A stretch of DNA of 64,000 bases, taken from positions 434,001 through 498,000 of the forward strand of contig CALUXD010000001.1 in NCBI GenBank assembly GCA_944324665.1, read 5' to 3'. The DNA is from Candidatus Proelusimicrobium volucris (lineage in GTDB: Bacteria; Elusimicrobiota; Elusimicrobia; Elusimicrobiales; Elusimicrobiaceae). The position numbers were made by a program, and so were the translations under genes. Numbering within the stretch: the first letter of the stretch is position 1; every line of letters begins with the position of its first letter. The notes under the pieces were generated by a model. The model saw nothing but the letters and a program-made list of their open reading frames with translations, did no database searches and was not told where the DNA came from. This document shows, piece by piece, positions 21,700 to 32,392 of the stretch.

Positions 21700-21811
21700 T
21701 GAAAAAGATTTCTTGCAGACAATAAGTTAAAATATAGATAATTAAACCATGATTAAAGCAATGGATACAATGACTATAGACCGTTGCTATATTTTACCCA
21801 GGAGTGATAAT

Positions 21812-23728
21812 ATGGACAGATTTGCCATCATAAACCGCATTGGTAATAAATACCATACAGCCAATATAGAAGATGGAGAGTATAGTTATGTCGCTGCGGC
21901 TGGATCCAAAGCCAAGTTAACCAAACTTCTGGGACATGAGTATAAACATTACAAGTTGGATATTCGTTTTGAAAAAGATGATGTGGTTGTTTTAGTAGAA
22001 ACAAAACAGGACTTTACGGAGGATGATGAACCTCAGTTAGAAGCATACTTAGAAGAAGAACGGGCTGTCCATAAAAGCAAAAAAGTAATCTGCATTTTGG
22101 CCAATACGACTAATGATAAAATCAAAGTTTGGCAATCCTCTATAGATGAAGAACATGTTTTGCCCAAAGAGACCGTTTTGGATGAAATGGATCACTATAT
22201 TCACCTGTTTGAACTTAGCAAATCAAATGACCGAGAGAGGGTTCTTAAAAACACCTATAAACTCAATGAAATGCTGCATAAAAAAGATATTGATGAGAAA
22301 CTGCGGAGCCAATTTGTAGGTACGATTTTGTTACATATTAAAAAGTTAATTAATACTTGGGGTTTTCAGTTAATCGGCACAGAAGCTATTAAGAAGATGG
22401 ATGATTACCTTGATAATTTGACCACTGTACAATCCATTCGTAGTGAAATACAAAATACTTTAAATGAATTACTGGATGGATCGGAGAATAAGACGGAAAA
22501 GATAAATCTTCTTCAAAAGAATGTTCTCGGAGACCAAAAAGTTAAGAAGTTAAATAAAGCCGAATGGCAAGAGATTTTTGATACCATACTAACCGATATT
22601 TATAAGTATATTGACACAGAAAGTGATGAGGGCCAAGATATATTAAATCTGTTCTTTATTGCTTTTAATAAATATACGGGTAAAGCTGATAAAAATCAGG
22701 CTTTTACCCCTGACCATATCACGGATTTTATGTGTAAACTGACTGATGTCGACTGCCATAAAAAGGTGTTAGACCCTACTTGTGGCAGTGGTTCTTTTCT
22801 GGTACAGGCTATGGTTAAAGAACTGGCAGATGCCCGTAGAGGTAAAACCGAAAAAGTAGCAAAGGAAGCTATGCGCAAGGTAAAAGAAGAAAATATCTAT
22901 GGTATTGAAGTGGAAGAAAAAGCATATGGCCTTTCTACTACTAATATGTTAATTCACAGTGACGGTAACTCCAACATCATACATGCGAGCTGTTTTGATA
23001 GTGCGGAGTTTATCAAGAAAGCCAATCCAGACATTATCCTCATGAATCCGCCCTATAATGCTAAACCCAAAAGTATACCAGACGCATATAAAAAAAATTG
23101 GGGAAAAGCAAAAGATGGTAAAGAAGATCCAACAAAGGGTTTGGTGTTTATTCATTTTTTGTCAGACGTTATTAAACAGATGAACGAAGAAAATAAAACA
23201 CAAAAAACAGTTAAACTGGCTGTTTTGTTGCCTCTACAATGCGCCATAGGTACAAGCAGTATCATTAGTGAAGAAAAAGCGGCAATGCTGAAGGATAATA
23301 CCTTGGAAGCAGTATTTTCCCTCCCTGGGGAAATGTTTTATCCTGGTTCATCTGTCAATGCTTGTTGTATGCTATTTACGCTCGGGCAGCCGCATATTAA
23401 ACCTAATGGGCAATCTCGCTCTACCTTTTTTGGCTACTGCAAGGATGACGGTTTTGTTAAGAAGAAGAACCTGGGCAGAGTAGAACAATTCGATTCAAAT
23501 GGACATTCTAAATGGGCGGCTATAGAAAAAGAATGGCTGACCTTGTTTGAACAAAAGAAGGCTGTTGACGGTAAATCAGCCGTGCAAGTAGTTAGTGCTG
23601 AGGATGAATGGCTTTGTGAAGCCTATATGAAAACAGACTATACTAAATTGACAGAAGCTGATTTTCAGCAAACTTTAAACAACTATCTGTCTTACTTGGT
23701 AAAGGAAGGCCAAGTTTATGAATCTTAA
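21812..23728 (+). CDS. BcgI-like restriction-modification subunit A (nuclease plus N6-adenine methylase)
   Basis: 638 residues from ATG 21812, chosen because AGGAG lies 7 nt upstream; an in-frame ATG at 21749 has no ribosome-binding site. The N-terminal domain has a PD-(D/E)XK-like pattern, D50 then E63-T-K65 (LDIRFEKDD ... VLVETKQ). A helical linker follows, then the gamma-type methylase with motif I DPTCGSGSF near residue 321 and catalytic NPPY near 411. A fused nuclease and methylase with a separate specificity protein is the BcgI (type IIB/IIG) arrangement, and the size is close to BcgI A. A type I HsdM is the alternative, but no HsdR gene accompanies it. Notably AT-rich, consistent with transfer. 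Confidence 0.82.
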   Translation: MDRFAIINRIGNKYHTANIEDGEYSYVAAAGSKAKLTKLLGHEYKHYKLDIRFEKDDVVVLVETKQDFTEDDEPQLEAYLEEERAVHKSKKVICILANTTNDKIKVWQSSIDEEHVLPKETVLDEMDHYIHLFELSKSNDRERVLKNTYKLNEMLHKKDIDEKLRSQFVGTILLHIKKLINTWGFQLIGTEAIKKMDDYLDNLTTVQSIRSEIQNTLNELLDGSENKTEKINLLQKNVLGDQKVKKLNKAEWQEIFDTILTDIYKYIDTESDEGQDILNLFFIAFNKYTGKADKNQAFTPDHITDFMCKLTDVDCHKKVLDPTCGSGSFLVQAMVKELADARRGKTEKVAKEAMRKVKEENIYGIEVEEKAYGLSTTNMLIHSDGNSNIIHASCFDSAEFIKKANPDIILMNPPYNAKPKSIPDAYKKNWGKAKDGKEDPTKGLVFIHFLSDVIKQMNEENKTQKTVKLAVLLPLQCAIGTSSIISEEKAAMLKDNTLEAVFSLPGEMFYPGSSVNACCMLFTLGQPHIKPNGQSRSTFFGYCKDDGFVKKKNLGRVEQFDSNGHSKWAAIEKEWLTLFEQKKAVDGKSAVQVVSAEDEWLCEAYMKTDYTKLTEADFQQTLNNYLSYLVKEGQVYES

Positions 23729-24842
23729 TAAACAAGATTGGAAGGAATTTAAACTTGAAAAGCTATTTACTATCCGTCGTGGAGATAGAATTGTAAAAGA
23801 TGAGGACTATTTTGCTATTCCGCCTGCTCCAGATTATAAGTACAGAGTCATTACAGCAAGTGCAACTAACAATAGTGTAGATGGTGTTTATAACCAAACA
23901 AACTGTTTGGGTAATTGTTTGATTAGTTGTGGAGAAGCCAACGGGATGTTTACTACTTGGCAGGATGAGCCGTGTTGGGCCTTAGATACGGTGAGGATAT
24001 ATACACCTATTGGCTTTACATTATCTCGCAACCAAGGTTTATATCTCGCCTGTTGTCTGACATTTAATATGTATAGATTTTCTTATGGTAGAAAAGCAAA
24101 GCCTGATAATATGTATTCTTTGGATATTAATTTACCAATTCAACATCATCTAGATGGTACGCCAGTCATTGACCCCAAAAAGGAGTTTAGCAAAGATGGC
24201 TATATCCCCGATTGGCAATTCATGGAAAACTACATCAAATCCTTGCATTACAAACCTTTAACTACTTCCAGGGCTCATGCTCCTAAAAAAGAACTTAATA
24301 TTTCCAAATGGAAAGATTTTGTTGTAGGAGATATATTTAATATCCAGTACGGTATAAATATGGAGCTTAATGCCTGTGAACCTTGCAACATATATGATCA
24401 AGAGGCGGTGGCCTTTGTGGCTAGGACCGCTGAAAACAATGGGGTCTCTGCCTTTGTAAAAAAAGAACAAGGTATGCTACCACAAGCAGCTGGCACGATT
24501 ACCTGTGCTGGCGGTGGATCGGTATTATCTACATTTGTTCAGGCTCATGATTTTTATAGTGGCCGTGATTTATATCTGCTGAACACAAAAGAGAATCTGT
24601 CAGTTAAGACTAAACTTTTTTTAACCACGGTACTATTAAAGAACCAATACAGATATTCTTATGGTAGACAAGCAAATAAAACTTTGCCTACTTTGTTACT
24701 TAAACTTCCTATTCAACATCATTCCGATGGTACGCCCGTCATTGACCCTGAAAAGAAGTACAGCAAGGAAGGTTACATCCCGGACTGGCAATTTATGGAA
24801 GATTATATAAATAGTTTGCCATACAGTGATAAAATCAAATGA
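23718..24842 (+). CDS. BcgI-like specificity subunit (two target-recognition domains)
   Basis: 374 residues, overlapping the methylase gene by 11 bases. It recognises the DNA target for the restriction-modification complex. Two half-sites are clear: WKEFKLEKLFTIRRG opens the first target-recognition domain and WKDFVVGDIFNIQYG the second (near residue 200). Each ends in YRFSYGRKA / YRYSYGRQA followed by a 114-bp repeated segment encoding LPIQHHxDGTPVIDP...GYIPDWQFMExYIxSL. Such repeats form the conserved scaffold helices. Two unequal domains predict a bipartite, asymmetric target. Confidence 0.85.
   Translation: MNLNKQDWKEFKLEKLFTIRRGDRIVKDEDYFAIPPAPDYKYRVITASATNNSVDGVYNQTNCLGNCLISCGEANGMFTTWQDEPCWALDTVRIYTPIGFTLSRNQGLYLACCLTFNMYRFSYGRKAKPDNMYSLDINLPIQHHLDGTPVIDPKKEFSKDGYIPDWQFMENYIKSLHYKPLTTSRAHAPKKELNISKWKDFVVGDIFNIQYGINMELNACEPCNIYDQEAVAFVARTAENNGVSAFVKKEQGMLPQAAGTITCAGGGSVLSTFVQAHDFYSGRDLYLLNTKENLSVKTKLFLTTVLLKNQYRYSYGRQANKTLPTLLLKLPIQHHSDGTPVIDPEKKYSKEGYIPDWQFMEDYINSLPYSDKIK
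24138..24251 (+). repeat. Specificity-gene internal repeat, copy 1
   Basis: A 114-bp segment encoding the conserved LPIQHHLDGTPVIDP...FMENYIKSLHY scaffold; about four fifths of its bases match copy 2 at 24711-24824 in the same frame. Homologous exchange between such copies can swap target domains. Confidence 0.85.
24711..24824 (+). repeat. Specificity-gene internal repeat, copy 2
   Basis: Second in-frame copy of the 114-bp scaffold repeat at 24138-24251, at the 3' end of the specificity gene, 573 bp (191 codons) downstream of copy 1. Confidence 0.85.
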
Positions 24843-25104: not shown

Positions 25105-26184
25105 TTAATCCATAAAGTATTCTTTTATTTCAGGAATTGTAACGTTAACATCTGTCACGAATGTTACGCTATATTTTGCTCTAGTAATAGCAACATAAAA
25201 TTTGGCAAGAGATTTCGTAATTTTTTGTTTATTATTGGAAGATAAATAATGATTTATTAACGTATTAGGTATTATTACCACCCTATCTCTGGTAATTCCT
25301 TTTACTGCTCCAAAATTCATAGTAGGGAGGCCCATTGCCTTGGGTTTTGATCTTTTGTCATAAATTAAAATTTGTGGCTTATATTTGTTGTAATACGCCT
25401 GTAGAAGGTTCGGTTTTATATAAAAAAGCCCCAAATGCTTATTGCTTTCTTGATTTTTAGAAATAGTGGAAGGAAGGTTAGGATATAAAGAATCGGCAAA
25501 CTTACAAATGGCTTCTGTACACCTATAGCACTCTCTTTGTTCTACTAATTTCCCCCAACCGTTGTTTTCCCATTCTTTAAACCACTGATACAGAGAAGTT
25601 TTTGTCTTATGTTTTGGAGAATGATGTGTTTTGTAAGTGGATTGCCTTCCATCTCCTACAAGTGTAATTTCTATATGGGATTGAAGCATTAATTCAATTA
25701 GCTCAAAGTCATACCCCGCTAAATCTTGGGCCTCATCAATAAAAATCTTACTAAAACATTTCTCTAGTCTTTTGATATAACAATTATTTCCTCTTTTATT
25801 AGCAACATAAGAAAACTTTGCTATTTTATCACTATAGATAGCTTTTTTATCTAGATTTAAATAATGATTGCTGTCTTTTTCGCGCGTATAAAGGGCCGAA
25901 ATGCCATGAACATAATGCATTTCCATAATTTTATCTTCTGAGTATATATAGTTTTGAAAAGGCCGAACCATATCTGACAGAAGAAAAGAGAACCAAGATT
26001 GAATAGTAATATTATTAGGAACTACCCCATTGAGATGTATGAAAATATTTTTGATATTGTTAATATTTTCGAGTGTAAAGGTAGTAATAAGTATATTTTT
26101 ATTTTTTTCCTCAAGAGCTTTTTTAACTAAAGTCGTTGTTTTTCCACTTCCGGCAGAAGCAAAAATAAATGTATTAGAGTTCAT
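25105..26184 (-). CDS. gajB: UvrD-like helicase of a Gabija-type pair (GajB)
   Basis: 359 residues. Superfamily 1 helicase motifs are in order: Walker A ASAGSGKT (9-16), motif II IFIDEAQDL (147-155), motif III LVGDGRQSTY (about 175-184), motif V NFGAVKGITRDRVVIIPN, and motif VI FYVAITRAKYSVTFV near the C-terminus. It overlaps gajA by 11 bases. In Gabija, GajB senses DNA ends or nucleotide depletion and works with GajA against phage. At 359 residues it is clearly shorter than well-studied GajB proteins (near 500), so the insertion domains are reduced. Gene pairing makes Gabija the best call. Confidence 0.85.
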   Translation of the reverse strand: MNSNTFIFASAGSGKTTTLVKKALEEKNKNILITTFTLENINNIKNIFIHLNGVVPNNITIQSWFSFLLSDMVRPFQNYIYSEDKIMEMHYVHGISALYTREKDSNHYLNLDKKAIYSDKIAKFSYVANKRGNNCYIKRLEKCFSKIFIDEAQDLAGYDFELIELMLQSHIEITLVGDGRQSTYKTHHSPKHKTKTSLYQWFKEWENNGWGKLVEQRECYRCTEAICKFADSLYPNLPSTISKNQESNKHLGLFYIKPNLLQAYYNKYKPQILIYDKRSKPKAMGLPTMNFGAVKGITRDRVVIIPNTLINHYLSSNNKQKITKSLAKFYVAITRAKYSVTFVTDVNVTIPEIKEYFMD

Positions 26185-27784
26185 TCACTACCTCTTGAAT
26201 ATAATCCGGTATTACAAAAGGAATATCCGTATCAAATAAAGACAAGGCACATTTTGTTTTGTTCATTTGCATATATTTTGCCAGTTCTGCTTTAGTTTGC
26301 TCCTTTCTATTTAAAATTTTATTTAAGGTACTTAGTTCGTTGCAGTCTACGATACAAGGCTCTAGAGTATTATTGTGTGGATTTTTATGATAACAAATTT
26401 TAATTGTAGAATTTTTTTCATCTAAATATTCTTGATATTTCTTCTGTAGACCATCGACATTTCCATCGTTATCTGTAATGACAAAAACAGTCTTTTTTAA
26501 TAATTTAGCTATTTCTAAAAATCGTTTAAAAGCAAGACCTACCGACATAATATCAATCCCTTTATCTAGCGGTTGCATATGATATTTTTGCATATATGCC
26601 TTTTTGACAATAAGTTCATCGGAAGGCCCTTCTACTAGAATTATTGTGTTAGATAATACGAGTCGTAGAGTATCAAAGCCAGGAAGCTTTCTGAAAAAAT
26701 CTATTGTTTCTTCGGGCAAATCAGACATAGTAACAGCATTATCCTTGTTTAATAATATAGTATTCTTTAATCCCACAGTATTCATAATAAAAGAACTGTG
26801 CGTACTAATAAATAATTGGTTGCTATTACAGTTGCTAGCAATGTGATGGACAAGTTTATTCATATTACTGAATGAAAGATTGGTTTCAGGCTCTTCTAAA
26901 AGGATGATGTGATTCTCTTCCTTGCAACCTTGTACAACCAATTTTGTTTTAATTGCATTTTGTTCTCCCTTGCCTATATTTTTAAAAGGGATATCATTTA
27001 AATAAAAGGTAAGGTTTGTTTCCCAAGTACTTTTGTTGGAAATATCTACAGATACACTGAGATTTTTATCTGTAATATCAGAACTGGATGATTGTAAGGT
27101 TTCATTGATTTTCTTAATGGCATCTTCGGTCGAAAAAGATTCTTTCAAGGTTCTATAGGTTAAATTTAGTTGAGCAGTTTCTTCCCTAGATAAAGAAGTC
27201 GAAAGAATTTCGTATAGATGTTTATCTTGAGTATTGTTATAGCGGGATTCTGTGCAGTTTAAAAAAGTACTCTGACAAGGAATCTTGGTTATTGTTAATG
27301 GGTTATTAGCAAACGAGGACCAATCATAAGTATAAAATTCAGCAGGAATGGTTTTTACTTTGGAAGGGTCTTTTATATATTCTTTATATTGCCTACTATA
27401 TTGATTATCAAAAAAAATACGCAAGAATAATCCTAGTCTGTCCTCATTCTTTGTGTTATTGTTTCCCCGAAGTCGATTTAAGTCTTGATTTTCGTCCTTA
27501 GCGAAGTAGAGCTCAATTAGAATTTCTGGAAGAGGTGCGTTAGAATTAGTTTGCAATTGCGCAATATAACTATCTACAACTTCTTTATTAAATAAATAAG
27601 GAGAAATTCCAAATCGGAGGGATTGATAATTTATCTGTAATGACAGCGCGAGGTGTATTGCTTCTAATAGGGTCGTCTTTCCTGCCTCATTATTGCCAAC
27701 GATTATATTGATATCAGAGTTGATTGGCAAATCTAATTCTTTAAAAACTTTATAATTTTTGATGAGGACTCTTTGAATTTTCAT
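26174..27784 (-). CDS. gajA: OLD-family ATPase/TOPRIM nuclease of a Gabija-type pair (GajA)
   Basis: 536 residues. The N-terminal ABC-type ATPase has Walker A GNNEAGKT (residues 30-37), a signature region near GKGEQNAIKTKLVVQG (271-286) and Walker B HIILLEEPET (292-301). The C-terminal TOPRIM nuclease has the glutamate in VEGPSDE (E385) and the D-x-D pair in VITDNDG (438-440). This ATPase-TOPRIM protein followed by a UvrD-like helicase is the Gabija (class 2 OLD) arrangement, in which GajA nicks DNA when nucleotide pools fall during infection. AT-rich, and on the opposite strand to the rest of the island, so probably acquired as its own module. No clear ribosome-binding site. Confidence 0.88.
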   Translation of the reverse strand: MKIQRVLIKNYKVFKELDLPINSDINIIVGNNEAGKTTLLEAIHLALSLQINYQSLRFGISPYLFNKEVVDSYIAQLQTNSNAPLPEILIELYFAKDENQDLNRLRGNNNTKNEDRLGLFLRIFFDNQYSRQYKEYIKDPSKVKTIPAEFYTYDWSSFANNPLTITKIPCQSTFLNCTESRYNNTQDKHLYEILSTSLSREETAQLNLTYRTLKESFSTEDAIKKINETLQSSSSDITDKNLSVSVDISNKSTWETNLTFYLNDIPFKNIGKGEQNAIKTKLVVQGCKEENHIILLEEPETNLSFSNMNKLVHHIASNCNSNQLFISTHSSFIMNTVGLKNTILLNKDNAVTMSDLPEETIDFFRKLPGFDTLRLVLSNTIILVEGPSDELIVKKAYMQKYHMQPLDKGIDIMSVGLAFKRFLEIAKLLKKTVFVITDNDGNVDGLQKKYQEYLDEKNSTIKICYHKNPHNNTLEPCIVDCNELSTLNKILNRKEQTKAELAKYMQMNKTKCALSLFDTDIPFVIPDYIQEVVNEL

Positions 27785-28080
27785 GATTTATCTCTTTTGG
27801 CTGTATATTGGTCAGTTAAATCTAATCTAAAAAGCTTATAATAAATATATTATATCTTTGAGTGTGCTTGTTTTCCAATTATATTGTGATGCCATCTTAT
27901 ATTACGAAGTATGCTGAATGTAGGATGGGATATTTTTTACCAAATTTGGGCTAAAATGGTATATTATTTATAGGAAATAATTGTATTTTCTATTATATAT
28001 CTTATTTATAAGTTATTTAATTTCGAAGGAGTATTTGTCTGGCTTTTAAGCCGTTTTGACGACTTAGACACAATTTGAGT
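27785..28080. other. AT-rich divergent gap between gajA and the structured RNA
   Basis: About 300 bp with no open frame worth reporting. It should hold the gajA promoter (minus) and the promoter of the RNA (plus). Many TATAAT-like hexamers occur, too many to choose one. TACCA (27940-27944) and TGGTA (27959-27963) can form a weak hairpin. Near the right end, TTAGACACA (28064-28072) recurs at 28160-28168 inside the RNA. Confidence 0.5.
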
Positions 28081-28284
28081 CTGTTTTTGGAACCGCATGA
28101 GGAATGCGGTGCGCTTTTGGGATACCAAAGGCTCAATCGTAGTCCAAAAACAGCCGAGTTTAGACACAGAGTAAGCGGCCTAATTACCCGCTTGTTCTGT
28201 GTCGAATGTTTCCTGCCCTCCGGGGCGGGAAACTGCGGCTGTTTATATTTGGGTTACTACGATTGGCTCGGATATAACAGCCGC
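28081..28284 (+). ncRNA. Compact structured RNA with six helices and a pseudoknot (family not identified)
   Basis: Helices: P1 28081-28091/28143-28153 (11 bp, perfect); P2 28092-28098/28104-28110 (7 bp); P3 28113-28120/28125-28132 (8 bp); P4 28163-28178/28188-28203 (16 bp); P5 28208-28218/28223-28233 (11 bp, closed by a UCCG tetraloop of the UNCG type); P6 28235-28248/28272-28284 (13 bp, one bulge). P1-P3 form a three-way junction. The strand left between P3 and P1 (28134-28142) is perfectly complementary to the P6 loop (28257-28265), giving a 9-bp pseudoknot. Four helix pairs are G-U in plus-strand RNA but would be A-C on the minus strand, so the plus strand is transcribed. Layout recalls IscB omega (HEARO) RNA, but no iscB is present. 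A cis-regulatory leader of the next gene is the other main option. Confidence 0.85.
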
Positions 28285-28351
28285 CATTTTTTATATCCTT
28301 TCCCGTTTCCTCGGTTCCGCTTTACAGATTATCTTCTAAAAGGAGCGTATG

Positions 28352-29158
28352 ATGAACTTAGGAATCCGGGTAGATACCCGCATTAAAGAAAACCTTAAGA
28401 AGTATCAAAAACAATTATTGCGCTTACAAGAGTTAGATGCTAAAGAGGCCCCTACCGAAAAAATAGCAATGGATATGCTTTGCGATGTGTTCGGCTACGA
28501 TTTGGAGCATGTTTTCGGCCAATACGGTAATAACGGGCGTTCTTGCGATGCCGTTATTAAAGACGATAAGAAAGTCTTTTATGTGTTTGAATGCAAGCGA
28601 ATAGGAACGGATAAGAAAGACTTTAACAAGCACATCCGCCAAGTGATAGAGTATTGCGCCACCCTGAATGTTCCTTGGGGTATTTTAACAAACGGGGCTT
28701 ATTGGCAGTTGTACTATGTGGATATTAAAGCCCAACCTGTAACTGCGGAATTAATTTGGGATTTTGATGTATTGGAATTAAGCCACCGCCAAGCGGCCCA
28801 TCGTGAACTATTGCTCCCTTTATGCCGGGAAGCCATTGCTAAACGCTTAAAAGAGGGTATTTTAGAAGAAAAACGGGCCTTGAGTGTGGAAAATATAGCC
28901 CGCGTCTTGTTTAGCAACGAAGTATTAAAAGCTATTAGCGGCGTTTTAAGGCGCAAAGTGGGGGCGCGCGTGGATGTGGATACCCTGGAAGCCAAAATCC
29001 GCGAATTATGCCCGAATTTGCCCGAAAATATACGGGGCTTTCGCGCGCCTAAGAAGAAAGACAAGCCCGCTCAGCCCGAAATTAAAGTCGTTACGATGGC
29101 TAAAGAGGGCGCAAACGAGGCCTTAAATGGGGAAAATCCTACGGGGGAAACAAAATGA
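28352..29158 (+). CDS. Orphan PD-(D/E)XK protein, HsdR N-terminal-like
   Basis: 268 residues from the second of two adjacent ATGs, which has AAAGGAG at 28339-28345 with proper spacing. The N-terminal half matches the type I restriction HsdR_N-type domain: TEKIAMDMLCDVFGYDLE, then a PD-(D/E)XK-like core with D66 (SCDAVIK) and E80-C-K82 (VFECKR), followed by NKHIRQVIEYCATLNVPWGILTNG. The C-terminal 100 residues are helical and polar, with no helicase domain. So it is a stand-alone nuclease-like protein, not a truncated HsdR in any obvious way. It lies 67 bp after the structured RNA and overlaps the next gene (ATGA). Function unknown. Confidence 0.75.
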   Translation: MNLGIRVDTRIKENLKKYQKQLLRLQELDAKEAPTEKIAMDMLCDVFGYDLEHVFGQYGNNGRSCDAVIKDDKKVFYVFECKRIGTDKKDFNKHIRQVIEYCATLNVPWGILTNGAYWQLYYVDIKAQPVTAELIWDFDVLELSHRQAAHRELLLPLCREAIAKRLKEGILEEKRALSVENIARVLFSNEVLKAISGVLRRKVGARVDVDTLEAKIRELCPNLPENIRGFRAPKKKDKPAQPEIKVVTMAKEGANEALNGENPTGETK

Positions 29159-30817: not shown

Positions 30818-32314
30818 ATGAATAAGACTGTGATTTATTTAAGAGTCTCTAGTAAAGGACAGGAAGAAAACGGCTATTCTCTGGACGCACAGGAAAAGTT
30901 GGCCCGGGAATATGCCGCCAAGAAAGGATTAGAGGTGGTCAAAATATGGAAAGGGGCGGAATCAGCTTGGGGAAAGATTGAAAGAACCAATTTTTCTGAG
31001 ATGCTGGCTTTTATGAAAAAGCATCACGAGGTCAGGCATATTATTTTTGATGTGCTAGACCGTATGACCCGCAATGATGTGGATAAACTTAAGATTGCCC
31101 AATTAGTAAAGCAATATGATAAAGTGGTTCATTTTTCCCGCGATAATAAGATGTACAGCCGGGAGTCCAGCTCCGACGAGGAATTTATGATGGATGTGCA
31201 GGTTGCCGTTGCCAAAAAATTATCCAATGACATTTCCCGCAAAACCACAATGGGTATGACAGAAAAGGCCGAACAGGGGATTTATCCGGCCCGCGCGCCG
31301 ATTGGCTACCTAAACAACCACCGCACAAGCAAAATTGATGTTGACCCGGAACGAGCCCCTTTTGTAAAACGCTTGTTTGAAATGGCGGCCAGCGGGGAAT
31401 ATTCTTTGCAAATGATAGAGGATATCCTGTATGCGGAGGGGTTAAGGGAGCGGTTGCATAATGGCAGAGTGCGTAAAAGTACCCTGTATCGGGTACTTCA
31501 CAACCCGATGTATTATGGTACTTTCCGTTGGGGTAAAAAACTCTACTCGGGTATTCACGAACCGCTCATTACAAAAGACTTATTCGAGAGGGCCAATAAG
31601 GCCCTCTCCCTTTTTGAGCGTCCCCGTGTTACTACCCGCAATTATCCTTTTTCTAATCTGCTTCATTGCAAAGATTGCGGCTGTTCTATTGTGGGGGATT
31701 TTGCCAAAAAGAAATATATGTATTACCGCTGTTCATTTTCCAAAGGGCAACATCCGCACGAAAAATACATTCGGGAACATCAGCTGGATGAGGCGTTTGC
31801 GGCCTTGATAGATGCTATTAGTTTAAAGCCGGGAGTAGTGTCGTGGCTACAAAAAGCCATAGAAATACGCTTAAAACACTTGGAAAAGGCCCAAAACAAG
31901 GCGACGGGCGGGCTGAAAGCGGAACTAAGCAAAAAGCAAACGGAATTAGAACGCTTATATGACGAGGGCTGGGAAAAGGGCTATCCGGCGGAGTTTATAA
32001 AACGCACGGAAGAACGCTTAAAAACGGCTATTGCCGAACTTACACAGCAAATACAAGCCCAAACTATACAGCTGGACGCCGTACGGCAAAAAAGCACAGA
32101 TATTTTAAAGTTGGTATGTAATATGGGTACTATCTATCGCGCGGCTCCGCTTTCAGAAAAAAAGCCTCTTTTGCGCCATATAGCCAGCGATTTTGTATTG
32201 GACGGACACAAAATTTACCCAAAATACCGCGAACCGTTCAATATTTTTGCGCAAGGAAATAAAAAATGCTTAGAAATTAAGGGAAAATCCCCTAAAAGTT
32301 CTAAGCATTTAATA

Positions 32315-32326
<12 letters not shown>
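30818..32326 (+). CDS. Large serine recombinase (integrase of the island)
   Basis: 502 residues. The resolvase domain starts with YLRVSSKGQ, with the catalytic serine at residue 11, followed by LDRMTRND and the helix E region. The recombinase domain follows (residues about 170-290: APIGYLNN, VLHNPMYYGTFRWG). A zinc ribbon comes next (LHCKDCGCSIVGD ... YYRCS), then a coiled coil (about 350-440). The last 21 codons overlap the terminator and 3' end of tRNA-His on the opposite strand, so the C-terminus is encoded by the target junction. A strong AAAGGAG precedes the ATG. It presumably integrates and excises the island. Confidence 0.94.
32257..32310 (-). terminator. tRNA-His terminator, lying inside the recombinase 3' end
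   Basis: AAATGCTTAGAA (32264-32275) and TTCTAAGCATTT (32299-32310) are perfect 12-bp arms, with a second inner stem (AGGG/CCCT). On the minus strand a T-rich tract follows. It terminates tRNA-His while also coding for recombinase residues on the plus strand. Confidence 0.8.

Positions 32327-32392
<66 letters not shown>

What the first reader, a model, noticed from the sequence alone, without database searches (positions are those of the whole stretch)
28081..28284. Compact structured RNA with a pseudoknot, family unidentified
Six helices of 7-16 bp and a 9-bp pseudoknot (28134-28142 with 28257-28265) pair roughly 150 of 204 nt with almost no linker sequence: P1-P2 0 nt, P2-P3 2 nt, P4-P5 4 nt, P5-P6 1 nt. 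The pseudoknot strand exactly fills the gap between P3 and the 3' side of P1. Four internal pairs (28115/28130, 28171/28195, 28172/28194, 28214/28227) are G-U only in plus-strand RNA. P5 has a UNCG-type tetraloop. This is far beyond what chance or a leader would give. I cannot name the family with certainty.
Basis: seen in the sequence. Interest (0 to 1): 0.88.

Follow-up and report, generated by a model that had tools for sequence, protein, structure and literature searches.

The report
New self-switching RNA leader in Elusimicrobiota
This stretch is one copy of a previously undescribed RNA switch found in the 5' leaders of well over a hundred genes (above all pilus-like and other surface-protein genes) of gut Elusimicrobiota bacteria; two competing, both conserved foldings would stop or allow transcription of the gene behind it, and one of its loops looks built to pair with its own twin.

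Summary
The structured RNA is real (z = -10.4), has no Rfam match, and belongs to a large family. A covariance model finds it in 97 of 341 Elusimicrobiota genomes, up to about 25 copies each. It is not an omega/HEARO RNA: it is a cis-acting leader. In 104 of 114 copies a same-strand gene with a ribosome site starts within 260 nt (median 43), against 17 of 112 on the divergent side. About half the sampled downstream genes are type IV pilin-like; others encode outer-membrane proteins, glycosyltransferases and restriction enzymes. P6 is an intrinsic terminator (U-run in 116/118 copies). The reported 'pseudoknot' covaries superbly but continues without a break into a 23-bp antiterminator (28134-28156 with 28236-28265) that excludes P1 and the terminator. 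Both states are conserved with compensatory changes; 51/54 truncated transcripts fold to the antiterminator, 49/54 full-length ones to the terminator. So it is a riboswitch-like transcription attenuator; trigger unknown. No leader peptide. Unexpected: the P4 loop carries a 4-nt self-complementary sequence at one fixed place in 88/92 copies, with seven different sequences (78/81 unique loops; shuffles average 22, maximum 35), the geometry of the HIV-1 dimerisation loop, suggesting the leaders pair with themselves. Function is predicted; nothing was tested at the bench.

The parts
27991..27996 (+). -10-like hexamer TATTAT, the window's counterpart of the TTTTTATAATAAAT box conserved upstream of many copies (likely promoter)
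   Evidence: alignment of upstream flanks, flank listing, consensus scan; weak on its own, inferred
28047..28066 (+). small upstream hairpin (TAAGCC..GGCTTA in most own-family copies; one mismatch here)
   Evidence: seen in flank alignment; not in all copies
28068..28290 (+). whole leader RNA as covered by the covariance model (234.8 bits)
28081..28153 (+). P1 (28081-28091/28143-28153) enclosing P2 and P3; terminator-permissive domain, putative sensor
   Evidence: 96.4% of cells paired in 102 copies, 6 of 11 pairs with double changes
28092..28110 (+). P2 hairpin
   Evidence: 7 of 7 pairs with double changes
28113..28132 (+). P3 hairpin
   Evidence: all modelled pairs with double changes
28134..28156 (+). 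antiterminator 5' strand: the 'pseudoknot' strand 28134-42, P1 3' strand 28143-53 and 28154-56
   Evidence: 23 pairs with 28236-28265; 90.4% of cells paired, 358 double-change cells against 101 shuffled and at most 90 slid; truncated-transcript folding
28163..28203 (+). P4 hairpin (absent from the short form)
   Evidence: 16 of 16 pairs with double changes
28181..28186 (+). self-complementary loop motif U-AAUU-A in the 9-nt P4 loop (28179-28187)
   Evidence: 4-nt palindrome at this place in 88/92 copies, 7 different palindromes; unique loops 78/81 against null mean 22, maximum 35; fixed +0.5 nt offset from the stem centre in 83 of 89
28208..28233 (+). P5 hairpin, UNCG-type loop here
   Evidence: 11 of 11 pairs with double changes
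28236..28265 (+). antiterminator 3' strand = 5' arm and loop of the terminator
28236..28290 (+). P6 intrinsic terminator hairpin and U-run (here CCA then UUUU)
   Evidence: P6 pairs 96.7% paired; U-run of 4 or more in 116/118 copies
28349..29158 (+). downstream gene presumably controlled by this copy: HSDR_N-domain protein, 269 aa
   Evidence: Pfam PF13588 6.7e-08; a 78%-identical protein also follows a leader in another genus (L123)

Best explanation
The element is a 5' leader RNA that decides, during transcription, whether RNA polymerase goes on into the gene behind it. P1-P2-P3 forms first. When the 5' arm and loop of the terminator have been made, they can pair with the 3' strand of P1 and the adjoining 9-nt strand to form a 23-bp antiterminator that opens P1 and blocks the terminator (gene ON). 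If P1 is held, the terminator hairpin P6 plus U-run forms (gene OFF, short RNA released). SHOWN by comparison: both pairings are conserved and covary, the U-run is there, and position and orientation relative to genes are fixed. INFERRED: that switching happens in vivo, that OFF follows from stabilising P1, and that a signal (metabolite or second messenger about 0.45, RNA-binding protein about 0.3, no signal but a fixed or random read-through probability about 0.2) sets the balance. The self-complementary P4 loop may let two leaders (or a leader and a released terminated RNA) pair. It is a regulon-wide switch for pilin-like and other surface or defence genes in gut Elusimicrobiota.
For: z = -10.4. 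Covariation of the terminator state: 102 copies, 94.1% of cells paired, 64 of 71 pairs with double changes, 1035 double-change cells against 265 shuffled. Covariation of the antiterminator: 23 pairs, 90.4% paired, 358 double-change cells against 101 shuffled, although the model used for the alignment did not contain this helix. Swap tests of real against exchanged strands: P1 -12.1/-9.3, antiterminator -11.1/-9.3, P6 -14.5/-11.7, outer antiterminator -9.9/-1.6 kcal/mol, always better than every one of 300 swaps, while a control pair was not. Transcript cut before the terminator's 3' arm: antiterminator is MFE in 51/54; full length: terminator in 49/54 (window). U-run 116/118. Same-strand start codon with SD within 260 nt 104/114 (median 43.5) against 17/112 divergent. 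Downstream genes 55/104 pilin-like, 6 outer-membrane barrels, glycosyltransferases, LicD, HSDR_N, methylases. No conserved leader peptide: 22/118 against 28 expected.
Against: No transcript, termination or ligand data. RNAfold is an equilibrium method and does not model kinetics or pseudoknots. Few unpaired nucleotides in P1-P2-P3 are strongly conserved, unusual for a metabolite aptamer. In the window copy the U-run is separated from the stem by CCA, so termination may be weak there; the generic terminator scan did not call it (its loop limit of 8 nt excludes P6). The gene associations are broad and name no pathway. Relatedness among copies inflates the shuffle controls, though the slid controls keep relatedness.
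Confidence: 0.86

Rival explanations
1. A trans-acting small RNA: each copy is an independent sRNA gene with its own promoter and terminator, folding into a stable pseudoknotted form, and the gene behind it is incidental.
For: A -10-like box lies upstream in many copies and the RNA ends in a terminator; a released 220-270-nt RNA is expected in the OFF state anyway; the 9-bp helix could form as a pseudoknot in it.
Against: Fixed position and orientation 5' of a gene in 104/114 copies. Conservation of an antiterminator that only matters during transcription. Dozens of copies per genome in front of different genes.
Confidence: 0.08
2. A mobile DNA repeat (MITE- or REP-like) or a guide RNA of a transposon (HEARO/omega, bridge RNA).
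For: Dispersed multicopy element; some copies, the window's included, lie on apparent mobile elements (recombinase next to tRNA-His).
Against: Strong orientation and distance bias to genes, mutually exclusive covarying helices, no transposase or IscB/TnpB family reported among downstream genes or window neighbours, no Rfam match, none in phages, plasmids or viral contigs.
Confidence: 0.03
3. Translation-coupled attenuation: a ribosome on a short leader ORF decides between P1 and the antiterminator.
For: A conserved GGAG lies upstream of P1 in many own-family copies.
Against: SD plus start codon plus short ORF in 22/118 copies, shuffled sequences give 28; no conserved frame.
Confidence: 0.03

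Closest known systems
Terminator/antiterminator riboswitches (e.g. orphan riboswitch classes, PMC7266159)
   Same: 5' leader, one strand shared between a closing helix P1 and an antiterminator, intrinsic terminator with U-run, many copies in front of unrelated genes
   Different: no ligand known; no strongly conserved single-stranded aptamer core; antiterminator includes a freely varying 9-bp segment; self-complementary loop in P4; no Rfam match
c-di-GMP-I (GEMM) riboswitches, which control surface and motility genes in several bacteria (review PMC6366702)
   Same: regulon of pilins and surface proteins, transcription-level switch; GGDEF proteins are encoded in 59 of 60 relatives including the own genome
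   Different: no match to the Rfam models; different architecture
HIV-1 dimerisation initiation site kissing loop (PMC4066764, PMC7357161)
   Same: 9-nt apical loop, six-nt centre with two nt before and one after, palindrome half a base off the stem centre
   Different: seven different palindromes, many A-U rich and therefore weak, some self-complementary over 4 nt only; in bacterial mRNA leaders; dimerisation not shown
OLE/GOLLD/ROOL RNAs (PMC12286853)
   Same: ornate bacterial RNAs; those three form homo-oligomers
   Different: this one is much smaller and cis-regulatory, with an intrinsic terminator
HEARO / omega RNA
   Same: dispersed structured RNA of about 200 nt
   Different: no Rfam match, no IscB/TnpB

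Membership tests
cis-acting transcription attenuator | lies in the 5' leader on the coding strand of a gene | tested here: met
   104/114 against 17/112 divergent
cis-acting transcription attenuator | intrinsic terminator with U-run | tested here: met
   P6 96.7% paired; U-run 116/118
cis-acting transcription attenuator | conserved antiterminator mutually exclusive with the terminator | tested here: met
cis-acting transcription attenuator | termination and read-through observed in transcription | not testable with these tools
   needs Term-seq or in vitro transcription
riboswitch | direct binding of a ligand | not testable with these tools
   needs in-line probing or in vitro transcription
riboswitch | conserved aptamer core with conserved unpaired nucleotides | tested here: inconclusive
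   conservation sits mostly in switching helices; few conserved junction bases
c-di-GMP riboswitch (GEMM) | match to the Rfam covariance models | tested here: not met
   no match at gathering or E of 10; divergent copies none
T-box leader | match to the Rfam T-box model | tested here: not met
HEARO/omega RNA | match to Rfam HEARO model | tested here: not met
HEARO/omega RNA | adjacent IscB/TnpB gene | tested here: not met
   none among the 25 families shown for 104 downstream genes; none among the eight window neighbours; flanks of other copies not scanned in full
leader-peptide attenuator | conserved short leader ORF with SD | tested here: not met
   22/118 against 28 by shuffling
DIS-like kissing dimer | self-complementary apical loop at fixed position | tested here: met
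   88/92; 78 of 81 unique loops, null maximum 35
DIS-like kissing dimer | RNA dimer in solution or cell | not testable with these tools
   native gel or proximity ligation needed

The most novel reading that the evidence does not exclude
A new class of bacterial attenuator whose leader RNAs pair with themselves (or with released terminated copies of the same type) through a DIS-like loop, with different palindromes keeping co-existing leaders apart, so that the ON/OFF choice of pilin, envelope and restriction genes depends on leader-leader contact or on a dimeric ligand or protein site.
Probability: 0.35. Interest if true: 0.9.

Novelty: new variant of a known kind. Interest (0 to 1): 0.76.

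Why it matters
It is a large, undescribed regulatory RNA class spread over at least three families of a poorly studied gut phylum, controlling expanded pilin families and other surface and restriction genes, the kinds of genes that face hosts and phages. Both switch states are visible in the sequences, so the mechanism can be tested at once. If the P4 loop dimerises, it would be a rare case of a bacterial mRNA leader that works as an RNA dimer.

Tried and rejected
Rfam at gathering and relaxed thresholds, including divergent short forms: only chance matches such as mir-6 and MAT2A_F. Phages, plasmids and viral contigs: nothing. Pilin-specific control: rejected, because the own genome has 18 pilin-motif matches but its three copies precede non-pilin genes. 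Leader peptide: rejected. Intramolecular partner for the P4 palindrome: a copy's own palindrome is not more frequent elsewhere in its leader than other palindromes. DNA dyad for the P4 palindrome: less likely, as it is half a base out of register with the stem. GGDEF as a ligand clue: present almost everywhere in the order, so uninformative. Literature searches found no description of this RNA in the open library. A strict pattern scan of genome contigs returned only Elusimicrobiota-labelled or unnamed MAGs; other phyla were not searched with the covariance model.

Full report
The finding. They are there. The plus strand folds at -108 kcal/mol, z = -10.4 against dinucleotide shuffles. Nothing in Rfam matches.

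A family. BLAST of the stretch finds a second copy in the same 1.5-Mb genome and copies in 62 of 150 relatives. From 24 diverse copies I built alignment A1 and covariance model R1. R1 finds three copies in the own genome (C1:145946, C1:462068 = this one, and a divergent short one at C2:115333), matches in 83 of 150 relatives, and in 97 of 341 genomes of the phylum, in 10 of 100 genera and three families, up to 22-25 copies per genome when scored fully. Named contigs show the phylum is Elusimicrobiota, mostly gut MAGs, among them Candidatus Avelusimicrobium. Family f21 is probably the Endomicrobia (inference). A short form without P4 (about 175-190 nt) exists in several genera, including the own genome.

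Structure by comparison. In 24 copies 94.7% of cells are paired, 43 of 80 pairs have double changes, and all nine pairs of the 9-bp helix do. In 102 copies (alignment A5) the P1-P6 structure has 94.1% of cells paired and 64 of 71 pairs with double changes; slid controls stay below 45% paired. A5 was fitted to P1-P6, so those counts lean towards that structure; the antiterminator was not in the model, so its counts do not have that bias.

A switch rather than a rigid pseudoknot. P6 followed by a U-run is an intrinsic terminator (116/118 copies with at least four U). The strand 28134-28156, which is the 'pseudoknot' strand, then P1's 3' strand, then three more bases, pairs over 23 base pairs with 28236-28265, the terminator's 5' arm plus loop. 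These pairs exclude P1 and P6. They are 90.4% paired in 102 copies with 358 double-change cells (shuffled 101, slid at most 90). Exchanging strands between copies weakens P1, antiterminator and P6 duplexes beyond all 300 exchanges, while an unrelated strand pair shows no such effect. In divergent copies the antiterminator changes together with the terminator, e.g. AAUAAUCGUC/GGCGAUUAUU in the own short copy and AAAUAGUCAU/AUGGCUAUUU in L168, against AACAGYCG/CGGCUGUU in the long form. A telling detail is that G28252 makes a G-U pair in the terminator in 85 of 101 copies but a C-G pair in the antiterminator in 90 of 102, as expected of a base kept for the antiterminator. Folding transcripts cut before the terminator's 3' arm gives the antiterminator in 51 of 54 copies; full-length transcripts give the terminator in 49 of 54.

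Cis-acting. With a uniform rule (ATG with SD within 260 nt, at least 60 codons), 104 of 114 copies have a same-strand gene downstream, median 43.5 nt, against 17 of 112 divergent genes upstream. Of 104 downstream proteins, 55 carry the type IV pilin N-methylation motif; others are outer-membrane barrels (6), glycosyltransferases, LicD, polysaccharide pyruvyl transferase, HSDR_N and DNA methylases. The sample is weighted towards genomes with many copies, so 55/104 is not a phylum-wide rate. The window copy precedes an HSDR_N protein on a stretch with a serine recombinase next to tRNA-His.

What sets the switch is open. No conserved leader peptide exists. Unpaired conserved bases are few: A28092, A28162, A28205 and the P4 loop U28181. 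A metabolite or second messenger is my first guess because c-di-GMP riboswitches control surface genes elsewhere (PMC6366702) and GGDEF proteins are present, but this is weak; a protein, or an unsignalled fixed read-through probability, remains possible.

The P4 loop. At one fixed place after an almost invariant U the loop has a 4-nt palindrome in 88 of 92 long copies. Counting the 4-mers alone over all 92: AAUU 38, GAUC 24, UAUA 13, CAUG 6, AGCU 5, UGCA 2, UCGA 1 (one GAUC copy lacks the U). Among 81 unique loops 78 are palindromic; shuffling columns gives 22 on average, 35 at most; other offsets give 0-13. The loop is 9 nt in 83 of 89 and there the palindrome sits half a base off the stem centre, the layout of the HIV-1 DIS loop (PMC4066764). 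No partner elsewhere in the leader follows the type, and one genome can hold several types. This points to leader-leader kissing. Against it: several types are A-U rich or only 4 nt long and would be weak unaided; a local loop fold with the outer two bases paired could explain part of the pattern but not the always self-complementary middle two bases.

Verdict. A new class of riboswitch-like transcription attenuator in Elusimicrobiota with a possible dimerisation loop. The attenuator reading is strong, the trigger unknown, dimerisation a hypothesis.

Noticed in passing
28179-28187 and alignment A5: P4 loop palindrome at a fixed place in nearly all long-form copies, seven different sequences.
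   Followed up: partly
window 25105-27784 (-): Gabija defence pair GajB and GajA (PADLOC E 4.6e-112 and 2.5e-191), with an N6 methylase and specificity subunit at 21749-24842.
   Followed up: partly
window 30818-32391: Large serine recombinase whose end overlaps a tRNA-His gene (32315-32391, -), as in integrative elements; the leader and its HSDR_N gene lie beside it and probably inside the element.
   Followed up: no
downstream of the U-run in many non-pilin copies (e.g. L002, L008, L011, L012, L020): A second conserved box TGTTAT..TTTGAGCC(CG), complementary to the terminator's 3' arm, lies before the start codon; it could refold the read-through mRNA. Not counted.
   Followed up: no
L168/L184 (G315:C15:6738-7169): Two leaders in tandem about 40 nt apart, like tandem riboswitches.
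   Followed up: no
own-family genomes: Very large expansion of pilin-motif genes, up to 80 or more (capped) per 1.5-Mb genome against 3-14 in the sister family.
   Followed up: no
L004 (G007:C7:173236): The same element seems to lack the HSDR_N gene, so the leader stands directly before the remains of the next gene.
   Followed up: no
L189 (G018:C1:1543524) and L002: The same zinc-ribbon gene family (MALIKC.EC.KE.SD) follows the leader in two genera.
   Followed up: partly
upstream flank, e.g. L006, L002, window 28026-28031: A GGAG motif is conserved between the promoter and the RNA in many own-family copies without a start codon behind it.
   Followed up: partly
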